From: Halichondria panicea
Taxonomy: Eukaryota; Porifera; Demospongiae; Suberitida; Halichondriidae
Assembly: GCF_963675165.1 (NCBI RefSeq)
Contig: NC_087385.1
Coordinates: forward strand, 1,107,501-1,171,500
Direction: 5' to 3'
DNA length: 64,000 bases
A model generated the notes under the pieces. It had not been told where the DNA came from. It saw only the letters and a program-made list of their open reading frames with translations, and ran no database searches. Position numbers and translations under genes: made by a program. Shown here piece by piece: positions 3,370-46,686 of the stretch (position 1 is the stretch's first letter; each line of letters starts with the position of its first letter).

Positions 3370-6300
3370 ATGGATGCTCCCATTGAACCATCACCTCGTT
3401 ACCGTACATTCTCTACTGCAGCTGATGGACGCCATTACTATTGGAGGGGGCTTGGTCTAAGACGAGGGTCTAACATCATTGCTGTGTATGATCCAAGTAC
3501 TGAGCTGTGGAGCCTCTTGCCCACCACTGGACCTCTACCCCCTGGAGAGTATGGTGGTTGCTCTGTTTGTGTAGGTCGTTGCCTGTACACCTTTGGCGGT
3601 TATGATGGGTCTTCTTATGTCAATGACATGAGCAAGCTTGATCTGGACACTCTCCAGTGGACCAAAATCAAAACCTCTGGTAGTCAGCCTATGAAAAAGG
3701 CTGTCTGTGGACTTGTCTGTGTGAATGAGAGAACTCTGTGCTGCATTGGAGGATACGGTATTAAGGGCACCACACAACCAGGATCAACATTCACCAGGGA
3801 CACAGAATTTACTAATGGACGTGGATGGACAAATGAGTTTCAATTTTTCAATGTTGAAAATGGTAATGCTATCCCTCCTGATTTACTACTAGTTATTCTA
3901 TTGACCCTAACTTCTCCAGGTGTCTGGTCGTCCCCTGAGCTCAGAGGAGAGAGACCTCCTCCCTGTAGTGGCTTCACCTTCACCATGGTGGACAAACACA
4001 GGGCAGTCCTCTTTGGAGGGCGCCAACCTGGCCGTGATTGTAGAGTCAATGACGTCTACCTATTTAATTTGAGGGACATGGTAAGTTAGTAAAATATGAA
4101 ATATTCATACACAGCTTATTGATGTGTGTTCACTGTGTGTAGGAGGTCACTAAGGTGAGGCCAGTACAGGGAGAGCCATGGCCAGTGGGGAGGGCAGGCC
4201 ATGCTGCCTGTTGTCTCAACTATGGCCAGGACGACCCTCAACTACTGATGTATGGAGGAAGAGATAATGACAACAAGATACTGGGTGACATGTGGACACT
4301 GGATGCCGACACTGGCAAGTGGACAGAGGTGAGGATGGTGGTTTAGACCTACAATACAGCAGTGATACCACAACTGTTTCAGCCTGAGACTAAGTTTTAA
4401 CATGTAAACATGTCTCTGACTTAATGCGTGGGTGTATGCTACACATGTACTTTGTACCACCTATAATGCATACCAGCAGTCATTGCCTTCCTTACATTTT
4501 GTACCTCCAGGTGACACCTCCTGAGTCAATGACACCACGTTACCGCCACTCCATCACTGCCACCAGTCTGGGACCAGGACTCACTGAGGTCCTCGCGTTT
4601 GGAGGCTCTCAGGAGGTGCTGGGAGATACCATTGCTGAGACCATCATACTGAGATTTGGTGAGCAGATATACAGCTAGTTATTCTGGCAACTATTGTTCA
4701 GGGTTTCATACAGGATTTTTAGTTGCGAGGGCGAAAATTTGAGGTGCAATTTGTGTTTCAATCATTCTTCTTTTAATTTTGGCTGGGTGGGAAATCCCAG
4801 GGCGCCCCCTCATCTCTATGAAACCCTGTTGTTTGTTAGAGACTAGTGGAATATACATGGGGAAAGTGCCTCAGAGGAGGTATACTATGGGACCAGAGGA
4901 GGTACGACACGGTCACATGACCAGCCAAAAGGATTATGAATCTCATTAACTTGTGCATGAATATCATTCAAGACTGTGTACTTTGATAGTGGATTTGGTT
5001 TGGCGTGTATCTTTCAAAAAATACACTTGACGTTTCTAAGATCAGGATTATTGATTGCTGGGCTTATATTGATGTGAAATAGCTTTTCAACCAGTTTCAA
5101 CCACCACTTAGATTTTGAGATATTCAGTGTAAATCTGTTTTAGAGTGTTCAATAAGTATTCTGTGCCTGCATTCAGGATAGGATCACTGCCAACATCTGA
5201 GCCTTGGTTCTTGGAGGTATACTATAGGACTTAGTATATCTGCAACTTACTTAGTGTCTTGTTGTTAAGTAATTGTAATGTAGTCAAGCCTCGAGGGCAA
5301 AGTTTGCCCATGTGCACTAATATCTAAACTAGAGCACTAAAGTGCAAACCCTCGGCTGGTGACAGGATTATAAAGAAACCAGAAATATAATGCAGTCCAT
5401 AATTATAGTGATGTTGTTATCATGTATGACTTGCACAGCAACTCAGGAGCTAAACCAGACTGGAGGCATGCTGAAACATTTGAGAACAGGTAGTGGTACT
5501 ATAGATATATGCACTGTGGATTAGGATCACAGTAAAGAAGCCTGGAGTCTCAGAGAAGTATGGCTCCAGGTTCTGCATGGAGTAGGATCCCAGTCAGCAG
5601 CAGGAGCTATAATTTAAGCTTCTACTTTAGTGACCCTGTTCCATTGTTCCTGGTATATACAGCTTTCTACTTTAGTGACCCTGTTCCATCGTTCTGGGTA
5701 CAGGATCACTTCAGTTATAAGTAACACATGTGCAAGTTCTGTTCAAGCTACATTTTGCTCGCTTTTATTAGACAAAGAAGCTTTAACACCGAAAGCTGCC
5801 ACTATCAAAAGTACTAACTTGTTGTGTGGAGGCTACTCATGCTGTAAACGCAGTGCTAGAACATCCAGGTAAGCAGACCTAGTCACAAGCTTATTTAAGC
5901 TTCTTAGCTTTTGCTCGACAAAGAAGCTTTAACATCAAAATCTGCCACTATTTAAACCAAGATATTGTTTTGTGAAGGCTACCTATGCTGCAAACGCAGC
6001 GCTATGGCATCCAGGTGAGTAGATATACTCGTGACAAACAGACAAACAAACAAACAAACAAACAAACCAACAGACTACTATACCCGCTGGCCGCGGCACG
6101 GCCTCGGGTAATGAGTGTGTGTCCATGTGTCAGGCAATCTTGTAGTACCATTGCTACACTTGGGATACTGAAGCAGTGCCTTTATACTTCTAAATCCTAT
6201 AAACACCTCAAACAGATTATATAATTATAGACAACGTCAAGTACACATTACATTGGTCAATCATTTTTGTATGCACAATTGTACTACATTTTTTCTTTTT

Positions 6301-7435
6301 CTTTCCTACAGAGTTGACTGGACCCTCAGCGTCTGTTGCTGGACCCTCGGCTGGGAAGTGGGCTCTCGTGGATGTGGCCCACAACGACACTAGAGGCTCC
6401 GCCCAGCGACTGAGTGAGAAGAGGATCAGACAAGCAACTGCTCGTGCCTCATCAGTCAGTGAGACCAGCGACCACTCCTCTCAAGACCGGGTGAGGGCTC
6501 TGGAACAACAGTTACGAGCAGCAGAGCAGAGAGAGCACGACATTCAACGTCGTCACCAACTACAGTTAGAAGAAAAGGATCGAGAATTGGCTATTAAAGA
6601 TCTTGAATTGACCGAAGCCAACCGTCGCCATGGAGATGCGGAGAGGAGAGCCCAGCTGGCAGAGGAGCGAGCAGAGGGTCTGGAGACTCAATGGGTGGTC
6701 CATCGTGGGATGATCCAAATGACAGAGAGACAGCTCGGTGGGGGAGGATGGGGGGTCGTCAAAGTGGCCAAGTTCCGAGGAATCGAGGTGGCAGCCAAGA
6801 CACTGTACGAGCAGCTCAGTTCCATCTATTATCGACGCATGTTTATTCGTGAGATGAACATGGCGGCTCGTCTGCGACACCCACACCTGGTCCAGTTCAT
6901 AGGAGCCACGCTGGAGGGGGAGATGATCATCCTGACAGAGCTCATGGCCACCAGTCTGAGGAGGGTGCTGGAGGGAGGTCGTATCTCACGTGAACACATC
7001 CTCTCCATCTCTGTGCAGGTCTGTCAAGCCCTCAACTATCTCCACCTCATGCAGCCAGACCCAGTGATCCATCGTGACATCAGCAGTGCAAACGTCCTCC
7101 TCAACCCTCTACCCAATGGCTGCTGGAGTGCAAAGGTCACAGACTACGGCTCTGTGAACACCCTGCGGATGTTGAACACTGTCAATCCGGGAAGTCCTGT
7201 ATACGCTGCCCCTGAGGCCGGTAACCCGTCCCTCCAGTCAACCAAGATGGACATGTTCAGTCTGGGGGTGCTCCTGATCGAGATGTGTTCTGACCAGTTT
7301 CCGAGCCAGGAAGAACGCGAGAGCTTATTCCTCACCATCCAAGACCGTCAGTTTTCTGACATCATCAGTCGCTGTATTGATAGAGAAAGAGACAATCGAC
7401 CAACCGCTCGACAACTGTTGAATGAACTACAGTAG
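3370..7435 (+). CDS. Kelch propeller-coiled coil-protein kinase, copy A (703 aa)
   Basis: Coding exons 3,370-3,862, 3,920-4,080, 4,143-4,328, 4,511-4,658 and 6,312-7,435 join in frame to 2,112 nt. Residues 1-329 form about six kelch blades with GG doublets (FGGYDG, IGGYG, FGGRQPG, YGGRDN, FGGSQE). A Ser/Thr-rich linker and a short coiled coil (about 390-460) follow, then a kinase domain: LGGGGWG glycine loop (471-477), catalytic Lys in VAAKTL (492), FIRE Glu (510), HRDISSAN (583-590), DYG instead of DFG (607), AAPE (628-631) and the RPTARQLL end. The HRDxxxxN form and overall look suggest a tyrosine-kinase-like (TKL) Ser/Thr kinase. There is no signal peptide or membrane segment, so a cytosolic sensor kinase is likely; ligand and substrate are unknown. 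The start is the first ATG after the acceptor. The first coding intron is only 57 nt, a multiple of three and stop-free, so its retention would stay open. Confidence 0.9.
4699..4828. mobile_element. MITE with CAGGGTTTCATACAGG terminus in kelch-kinase intron 5
   Basis: Begins CAGGGTTTCATACAGG and ends CTCTATGAAACCCTG (imperfect terminal inverted repeat), with TTGTT-like flanks. It is also present in unit B (about 20,452-20,658, with an internal expansion) and unit C (about 36,307-36,513), so it predates those copies. It is not seen in unit D, whose intron 5 is only 147 bp. Confidence 0.65.
4829..6311. repeat. Unit A-specific insertions in intron 5
   Basis: Compared with units B and C, intron 5 carries two extra pieces. 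About 4,890-5,215 is bounded by imperfect direct repeats GGAGGTATACTATGGGAC and GGAGGTATACTATAGGAC. The second, 5,328-6,108, starts ACTAGAGCACTAAAGTGC and ends GCCTCGGG, flanked by TAA; it contains an (ACAAA)n run near 6,035-6,065 and is related to 44,040-44,863 in unit D. Short ORFs here show no family resemblance and are not called. Confidence 0.6.
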
Positions 7436-46200: not shown

Positions 46201-46686
46201 ACCAGTCTGAGGAGGGTGCTGGAGGGAGGTCGTATCTCACGTGAACACATCCTCTCCATCTCTGTGCAGGTCTGTCAAGCCCTCAACTATCTCCACCTCA
46301 TGCAGCCAGACCCAGTGATCCATCGTGACATCAGCAGTGCAAACGTCCTCCTCAACCCTATACCCAATGGCCGCTGGAGTGCAAAGGTCACAGACTACGG
46401 CTCAGTGAACACCCTGCGAATGTTGAACACTGTCAATCCAGGGAGTCCTGTATACGCTGCCCCTGAGGCCGGTAACCCGTCCCTCCAGTCAACCAAGATG
46501 GACATGTTCAGTCTGGGGGTGCTCCTGATCGAGATATGTTCTGGCCAGTTTCCGAGCCAGGAAGAACGCGAGAGCTTATTCCTCACCATCCAAGACCGTC
46601 AGTTCTCTGACATCATCAGTCGCTGTATCGATAGAGAGAGAGACAATCGACCAACCGCTCGACAACTGTTGAATGAACTACAGTAG
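43294..46686 (+). CDS. Kelch propeller-coiled coil-protein kinase, copy D (711 aa)
   Basis: Coding exons 43,294-43,783, 43,848-44,008, 44,891-45,073, 45,238-45,382 and 45,530-46,686 join in frame to 2,136 nt. The N-terminus has two extra residues (MDAPSPIEP). Short coiled coil of its own type (KDHDAERINLELIAEIERLQ). Kinase motifs complete, including VAAKTL, HRDISSAN, DYG and AAPE. Ligand-face residues: PRYDTF, EYGGCS, GGHDGSS, KKALCE, PCTGFTF, FGGRQSGRDG, RSVHAA, YGGRSSD (one codon shorter), RLLHSI, FGGSRELLGD. Intron 3 is enlarged to 882 bp by a transposon carrying another MITE. Confidence 0.9.
44040..44863. mobile_element. ACTAGAGC element in kelch-kinase D intron 3
   Basis: Starts ACTAGAGCACTAAAGTGC, ends GCGCCTCGGG, flanked by TTA. 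A relative (5,328-6,108) in intron 5 of copy A is flanked by TAA. Units A-C have the empty site here. It contains (GACA)n near 44,795-44,825, where the A relative has (ACAAA)n. No terminal inverted repeat is seen, so the class is open. Confidence 0.65.
44194..44399. mobile_element. TA-flanked MITE nested in the ACTAGAGC element
   Basis: Termini CCGTATAGCGGGTAATTTT and inverse AAAATTACCAGCTATACGG, flanked by TA. The interior is rich in ATATTCGTGG and its inverse. 206 bp, mariner-type ends, non-coding. Confidence 0.8.

What the first reader, a model, noticed from the sequence alone, without database searches (positions are those of the whole stretch)
3370..46686. Kelch-kinase paralogues diversified precisely at the propeller's predicted ligand face
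Seen: in copies A/B/C/D differences cluster in every blade just after GG and just before the next strand. Examples: blade 2 GG(Y/S/W/H)DGSS and G(EY/KF/EA/EY)GG; blade 3 KKA(V/Y/G/L)C; blade 5 GR(AG/SL/ST/SV)HAA; blade 6 PR(YR/YL/CR/LL)HS and FGG(SQEVL/RREWS/GRKLE/SRELL)GD. Long flanking stretches are identical and the kinase domain is nearly invariant. Known: in KEAP1 the ligand contacts sit at these positions (after the GG doublet, e.g. Tyr334, Arg380, Tyr525, Tyr572; before the strand, e.g. Arg415, Ser508, Ser555, Ser602). Inference: a tandem family of intracellular sensor kinases under diversifying selection for different ligands, possibly immune or self-recognition.
Basis: partly seen in the sequence, partly recalled or inferred. 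Interest (0 to 1): 0.9.

Follow-up and report, generated by a model that had tools for sequence, protein, structure and literature searches.

The report
Kelch-kinase family with hypervariable propeller face
An animal genome carries dozens of closely similar kinase genes whose fastest-changing spots ring one face of a propeller-shaped domain, as expected of an inherited repertoire of recognition receptors inside the cell.

Summary
The four window genes are five-exon genes: six-bladed kelch propeller, coiled-coil linker, protein kinase. Their family has 73 strong matches in this genome, 68 on one contig. In 34 distinct copies without propeller stops, 41 of 322 codons show beta>alpha on both a joint tree and per-exon trees. 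Of these, 38 lie in BC/DA loops and none in AB/CD loops of the other face. The residues after GG (RG in blade 1) and just before strand a vary in all six blades. At 18 such sites codon positions 1-2 differ in about 53% of pairs, introns in 6-13%. A null simulation without recombination gave 0 of 300 sites. Two kinase types 38% identical share the same propeller type. A second family (126 scored matches), ordered Death-like exon, kinase, kelch, shows the same pattern in the 8 copies read. The closest known analogue is the fungal HNWD/het-e propeller repertoire. I read this as an intracellular recognition-receptor repertoire, probably for non-self.

The parts
3370..3862 (+). Gene A exon 1 from its start codon: propeller blades 1-3 (acceptor CAG ends at 3366)
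   Evidence: kelch Pfam hits
3920..4080 (+). Gene A exon 2: blade 4
4143..4328 (+). Gene A exon 3: blade 5
4511..4658 (+). Gene A exon 4: blade 6
6312..7435 (+). Gene A exon 5: conserved linker, coiled coil, type 1 protein kinase (VAAK, HRD, DYG)
   Evidence: (PF00069 E=1.5e-35)
18861..19344 (+). Gene B exon 1: blades 1-3
19409..19569 (+). Gene B exon 2: blade 4
19632..19817 (+). Gene B exon 3: blade 5
20001..20148 (+). Gene B exon 4: blade 6
21038..22425 (+). Gene B exon 5: linker, coiled coil, type 1 kinase
34977..35460 (+). Gene C exon 1: blades 1-3
35525..35682 (+). Gene C exon 2: blade 4
35746..35931 (+). Gene C exon 3: blade 5
36122..36269 (+). Gene C exon 4: blade 6
36890..38235 (+). 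Gene C exon 5: linker, coiled coil, type 1 kinase; VAAN in place of VAAK, so possibly a catalytically dead copy
43294..43783 (+). Gene D exon 1: blades 1-3
43848..44008 (+). Gene D exon 2: blade 4
44891..45073 (+). Gene D exon 3: blade 5 (the intron before it is much longer than in A-C)
45235..45382 (+). Gene D exon 4: blade 6
45530..46686 (+). Gene D exon 5: linker, coiled coil, type 1 kinase

Best explanation
The window holds four members of a large, mostly tandem family of receptor kinases of the cell interior: an N-terminal six-bladed kelch propeller, a coiled-coil linker and a C-terminal protein kinase. Shown by sequence: the propeller scaffold, exon structure and kinase motifs are conserved; a ring of loop residues assigned to one propeller face changes far faster than introns; the same propeller type is joined to two different kinases; and a second kelch-kinase family in the same genome varies at the same positions. 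Inferred: that face binds variable ligands (proteins or peptides), each paralogue having its own specificity; binding changes the oligomeric or activation state of the coiled-coil/kinase half, which passes the signal on; the selection comes from ligands that keep changing, most likely microbial or other non-self molecules.
For: Family size: 73 matches at E<1e-40 in the own genome, 68 on C9. Selection: 46 sites on the joint tree, 50 on exon trees, 41 on both with PP>0.9; 38 of the 41 in BC/DA loops; 16 of 18 face sites positive on both; null simulation 0 of 300. Faster than neutral: codon positions 1/2 at the face differ at 0.53/0.52, introns at 0.06-0.13, framework at 0.05/0.04. Synonymous rate at the face averages 0.81 against 0.53 in the framework on the joint tree (1.11 against 0.60 on exon trees), nonsynonymous 5.6 against 0.22; same-residue codon differences 9.1% against 7.2%. 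All 34 faces are distinct, mean 13.0 of 18 residues different; Tyr, Ser, Ala and Trp are enriched there. Of 37 loci with a typed kinase, 32 full-length non-duplicate ones were checked: HRD and D[YL]G in 32 of 32, VAxK in 31 of 32. Kinase type changes 7 times on the joint propeller tree of 30 copies, 6-8 on exon trees. Second family with the same pattern in 8 copies; Death kinship of its N-terminal exon through relatives.
Against: No expression, ligand, population or structural data. No structural model could be made, so loop assignment is by hand. Recombination among copies can inflate site tests; exon trees reduce this but do not remove it, many nodes of the joint tree have low support, and the null simulation had no recombination. 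Several sites with high posterior have grid likelihood-ratio p>0.05. Third positions at the face also differ more (0.32) than introns and the synonymous rate there is up to about twice the framework's, so some local rise in mutation or multi-base change is not excluded. 8 of 44 copies read have stops in the propeller frame as extracted. Copy C's kinase may be dead.
Confidence: 0.7

Rival explanations
1. Recognition of the animal's own diverse proteins: an expanded adaptor-like family whose propellers recruit different endogenous substrates, with no role in defence.
For: Solved relatives of the propeller include KLHDC2, KLHDC3 and KEAP1, which bind endogenous degrons or peptides (recalled).
Against: Fixed endogenous partners do not explain continuing change: the recent pair L031/L033 differs by 9 propeller bases, all in BC-loop codons, against 6 of 4,947 in introns, exon 5 and 3' flank. 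The Death-like exon of the second family points to defence or cell-death signalling.
Confidence: 0.15
2. Allorecognition: the faces read polymorphic self tags, as in fungal heterokaryon incompatibility.
For: The fungal HNWD propellers, selected in the same two loop types, belong to an allorecognition gene family (PMC1805685, passages).
Against: Nothing in the sequence separates this from defence against microbes. Some 73 plus 126 matches is many for an allorecognition system (my judgement).
Confidence: 0.15
3. A loop-targeted mutation process, rather than selection, makes the diversity.
For: Recent pair L031/L033: all 9 propeller differences fall in BC loops, including one synonymous change and a three-base codon replacement (K/L) whose two codons occur in no other of the copies compared. 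Third positions at face sites are raised.
Against: Synonymous rate at face sites is only modestly above the framework's while the nonsynonymous rate is some 25-fold higher on the joint tree. Many face codons keep one third base while positions 1 and 2 take many values. No AB/CD codon passes on both trees and introns are quiet.
Confidence: 0.08
4. Relaxed constraint on exposed loops of redundant duplicates.
For: The family has broken copies (8 of 44 read have stops as extracted).
Against: Loops of the opposite face stay conserved (0 of 44 codons on both trees), and face codon positions 1-2 differ four to nine times as much as introns; relaxation cannot exceed the neutral rate.
Confidence: 0.03

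Closest known systems
HNWD / het-d / het-e family of Podospora anserina (NACHT-WD40); PMC1805685, passages incl. part of the abstract seen
   Same: A beta-propeller recognition domain with conserved scaffold; four codon positions per repeat under positive selection, in the d-a loop and the b-c turn, on the top of the propeller in a homology model; sequence exchange within the gene family.
   Different: WD40 rather than kelch; repeats near-identical to each other and variable in number, where here there are six fixed blades of unlike sequence; NACHT domain rather than a kinase; 10 genes rather than 73 and 126 matches; fungus rather than animal.
KEAP1/KLHL and KLHDC2 kelch propellers (contact residues in PMC6891428 passages)
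   Same: Kelch fold; ligand contacts at GG+1 and just before strand a (numbering recalled).
   Different: Ubiquitin-ligase adaptors without a kinase, not hypervariable gene arrays (recalled).
IRAK/RIPK-type Death-domain kinases (recalled)
   Same: The second family (C1/C6/C28) pairs a Death-like exon with a kinase, in the one copy read upstream.
   Different: It adds a C-terminal hypervariable kelch propeller. In the window family no Death domain was hit in the exon frames scanned for genes A and C.
Nematode MATH-BTB and F-box adaptor expansions under positive selection (recalled, not looked up)
   Same: Large families with selection on the substrate-binding domain.
   Different: Ubiquitin-ligase adaptors, different folds, no kinase.

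Membership tests
Kelch beta-propeller | Kelch repeats with GG doublet and conserved spacing | tested here: met
   PF24681 E=2.6e-31 and PF01344 E=1e-10 on gene A exons 1-2, both over cut-off; same on gene C exon 1; exons 3 and 4 were placed by alignment only
Kelch beta-propeller | Closed six-bladed fold | not testable with these tools
Active protein kinase | Lys in VAxK, HRD, DxG | tested here: met
   31 of 32, 32 of 32 and 32 of 32 kinases checked; 5 of 37 typed loci were left out as duplicates or short; the miss is gene C of the window
TKL kinase group | Placement in the TKL group | tested here: inconclusive
   best solved relatives of gene C's kinase are TAK1, CTR1 and MLKs; no kinase tree was built
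HNWD/het-e receptors | Positive selection in d-a and b-c loops of a propeller | tested here: met
   against passages of PMC1805685
HNWD/het-e receptors | WD40 repeats and NACHT domain | tested here: not met
   Pfam scan of exons 1-2 and 5 of gene A and exons 1 and 5 of gene C shows kelch-type and kinase families only
KLHL/BTB-kelch adaptors | BTB and BACK domains | tested here: not met
   none in the exon frames of genes A and C scanned; the exon upstream of the start codon was not found
IRAK/RIPK-like Death kinases (second family only) | Death domain next to a kinase | tested here: inconclusive
   no direct Pfam or PDB hit for the exon; its relatives on C3 (41% and 39% identity) coincide with PF00531 hits over cut-off, and a 68% relative on C28 and a 64.8-bit PF00531 hit beside it are both reported in a 372-aa open frame

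The most novel reading that the evidence does not exclude
This animal carries a germline 'propeller antibody' system: two receptor-kinase repertoires (kelch-coil-kinase and Death-like/kinase/kelch, near 200 matches together) whose ligand-facing loops are diversified by a loop-restricted process on top of selection, with binding heads exchanged among signalling kinases.
Probability: 0.12. Interest if true: 0.96.

Novelty: new variant of a known kind. Interest (0 to 1): 0.82.

Why it matters
Hypervariable propeller receptors were known to me only from fungal NLR-type genes. Finding the same two loop types under selection in two animal kelch-kinase families that do not find each other in sequence searches suggests that propeller faces are a general substrate for inherited recognition repertoires. 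It gives a concrete, testable candidate for specific intracellular recognition in an animal, with the likely specificity residues mapped and a kinase read-out attached.

Tried and rejected
Adenine-directed (DGR-like) mutagenesis: considered because the differences of the pair L031/L033 involve an A in one copy or the other; set aside because face codons vary over all four bases and some keep a fixed third-base A; no reverse transcriptase was searched for. Mutation hotspot and relaxed constraint: see rivals. Death domain by direct Pfam and PDB search of the second family's N-terminal exon: no hit; kept only through relatives. Printed precedent for animal kelch-kinase repertoires: I saw none among the papers listed (20 of 217 listed; 15 of 129; 9 of 9; 10 of 170; 10 of 15; 12 of 28; 5 of 5; 7 of 7), judged from titles and abstract starts; lists were capped and the library lacks most subscription papers. 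PMC6208332 (passages) lists 'kelch motif containing genes' changed in sponges given microbial molecules, with no architecture in the passages seen. Organism: Wnt-family matches (10 places, 0 of 14 control genomes) say animal; 'sponge' is my guess from recalled features and was not tested.
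Full report
Setting. The window lies at C9:1107501-1171500 of an unnamed 131-Mb genome in 39 contigs. Wnt-family matches show that it is an animal. A demosponge is my guess, not a result.

Gene anatomy. Comparing the four copies with other family members gives five coding exons: exon 1 (blades 1-3), exons 2-4 (blades 4, 5, 6) and exon 5 (linker, coiled coil, kinase). 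The junctions read in A-D and L035 have GT and AG borders and the same phases. The start codon follows directly after a splice acceptor, mostly in two forms, CAG|GTAATGGAT.. and CAG|ACAATGTTG.., so an untranslated upstream exon is likely. I see no signal peptide by eye, hence 'intracellular' is inferred. Pfam gives kelch families on exons 1-2 of gene A and exon 1 of gene C, and protein kinase on exon 5 of both. The nearest solved kinases are TAK1, CTR1 and MLKs. Nearest solved propellers are designed kelch proteins, then KLHDC3, KLHDC2, KLHDC10, KLHL12, LZTR1, KLHL20 and KEAP1.

Family. Exon 1 of gene A finds 82 places in its own genome at E<=0.001, 73 of them at E<1e-40, 68 of those on C9; some are fragments. 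I read 44 of the 73 through the propeller (4 in the window, 40) and exon 1 alone of 10 more. The selection tests used 34 of the 44: 8 with stops in the frame as extracted and 2 exact duplicates were dropped. Codon numbers follow gene A with the junction glycine between exons 1 and 2 left out, and the first three columns were masked.

Selection. I wrote a FUBAR-like grid model (MG94-type codon rates, 15 x 15 grid, weights by EM) on IQ-TREE trees. Of 322 codons, 46 have PP(beta>alpha)>0.9 on the joint tree, 50 on exon trees, 41 on both. Grid likelihood-ratio p-values are strong for some sites (3e-7 at WRG[X]GP, 1e-6 at VGRA[X]HAA) but not for all: several high-posterior sites have p>0.05 one by one, so single weak sites should not be leaned on. 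Many nodes of the joint tree have low bootstrap support. Simulating 300 codons with beta<=alpha, about a tenth of them hotspots, gave no site above 0.9 (maximum 0.779); that simulation had no recombination.

Place. With loops assigned by hand from the kelch pattern, the 41 sites fall 26 of 64 in BC loops, 12 of 65 in DA loops, 0 of 29 in AB, 0 of 15 in CD and 3 of 149 in strands. On the joint tree alone (46 sites) 2 of 15 CD codons and 3 of 149 strand codons pass; on exon trees alone (50 sites) 0 of 15 and 5 of 149. BC and DA loops lie on one face of a kelch propeller, AB and CD on the other (recalled). GG+1 (RG+1 in blade 1) has PP of at least 0.98 in six of six blades on the joint tree, and the residue before strand a has entropy of at least 2.0 bits in six of six. 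In KEAP1, ligand contacts include Tyr334, Tyr525, Tyr572, Ser363, Arg415, Ser508, Ser555 and Ser602 (passages of PMC6891428). The alignment of the window with a designed kelch protein puts GG[Y]DG on GG[Y]DG and GEY-GG on RSG-VG; the link from there to KEAP1 numbers is recalled.

Rate against neutral sequence. Over 561 pairs, codon positions 1, 2, 3 at the 18 face sites differ at 0.53, 0.52, 0.32; other BC/DA codons at 0.15, 0.12, 0.09; framework at 0.05, 0.04, 0.09; the three introns compared at 0.11, 0.13 and 0.06 (33, 33 and 19 of 34 copies, those with introns in the length range). Within A-D plus L009 and L010 the face is 0.52, 0.55, 0.28 and two introns are 0.07. Many face codons hold one third base while positions 1 and 2 take many values. 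The synonymous rate at the face averages 0.81 against 0.53 in the framework on the joint tree, 1.11 against 0.60 on exon trees. This rules out relaxed constraint and argues against a plain hotspot, though the raised third-position and synonymous figures are results against a pure selection story.

Recent copies. L031 and L033 (59 kb apart) differ at 1 of 771 intron bases, 2 of 1,299 in exon 5 and 3 of 2,877 downstream (with 4 indels), but at 9 propeller bases, all in seven BC-loop codons: 6 nonsynonymous and 1 synonymous change. Their 5' flank differs at 69 of 385 bases, so the shared block begins near exon 1. L022/L042 look different: 19 differences in exon 1, several of them synonymous, as a gene-conversion tract would leave.

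Kinase exchange. 37 of the 44 copies have a typed kinase, in two types 38% identical (13 and 24 loci). Each type has most change at third positions (type 1, 13 copies: 0.036, 0.030, 0.098; type 2, 19 of 24 copies: 0.098, 0.079, 0.175). On the propeller trees of 30 copies the type changes 7 times on the joint tree and 6-8 times on exon trees (shuffled means about 10, minima 5-6), so type is only loosely tied to propeller ancestry; weak node support limits the count. The clearest case is L028 and L037, sisters with 100% support carrying different types. Binding heads and signalling halves have been re-paired, with the near-identical linker as the likely crossover zone (inference).

Second family. 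A different 315-codon kelch exon occurs at 126 scored places on C1, C6 and C28 (463 first-look candidates, so a lower bound). Neither family's search listed the other's loci. I read 8 copies. In them 16 of 311 codons have PP>0.9; by eye all lie in BC or DA loops, among them one residue just before strand a in each of six blades and GG+1 in four. Upstream of the one copy read lies a kinase exon (PF07714 E=8.9e-37; 24% identical to the window kinase) and before it a Death-like exon. Direct searches of that exon found no Death domain, but its relatives coincide with Pfam Death hits. The order is thus reversed while the kind of receptor looks the same.

Reading. I take both families for receptor kinases of the cell interior with a diversified ligand face. 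That the ligands are non-self is the best guess, resting on the pattern of continuing change and on the Death-like partner. The closest known system is the fungal HNWD family, where selected positions sit in the same two loop types of a WD40 propeller (PMC1805685 passages). It works like that system but is not a member of it: no WD40 and no NACHT in the frames scanned. I saw no printed account of an animal kelch-kinase repertoire in the capped listings.

Noticed in passing
G000 C1:15.48-17.39 Mb and 10.99-11.03 Mb, C6:0.48-0.79 and 7.20 Mb, C28; L049-L056, L067: A second kelch family (126 scored matches) shows the same hypervariable face in the 8 copies read; the one copy read upstream has the order Death-like exon, kinase, kelch.
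   Followed up: partly
window 23806-28172 (-), 40156-40989 (-), 48634-62088 (-): Minus-strand BLTP1-like C-terminal exons (PF25040 on 2 of 3 frames scanned); similar partial frames at 24-28 kb and 40-41 kb suggest that the kelch-kinase duplications dragged along the 3' end of this neighbour.
   Followed up: no
window 36890-38235 (gene C): Kinase with VAAN where its relatives have VAAK; possibly catalytically dead.
   Followed up: partly
G000 C9:293000-318633 and C9:321200-346575 (L014/L015, L022/L023, L045/L046): Segmental duplication with about 28 kb spacing holding three kelch-kinase genes: no base differences in exons and introns of the three pairs; the 3' stretches of two pairs differ.
   Followed up: partly
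L016, L017, L034, L048: Copies with a propeller but no kinase match after it in the stretch read; L016 and L017 also have stops in the propeller. Possible decoys or broken genes.
   Followed up: no
G000: 148 Pfam Death-domain matches (503 first-look candidates, 150 scored), many close together on C12, C14 and C1: a large Death-domain complement.
   Followed up: no
window 56462-57343: Tandem array of a 28-base unit beside the BLTP1-like exons.
   Followed up: no
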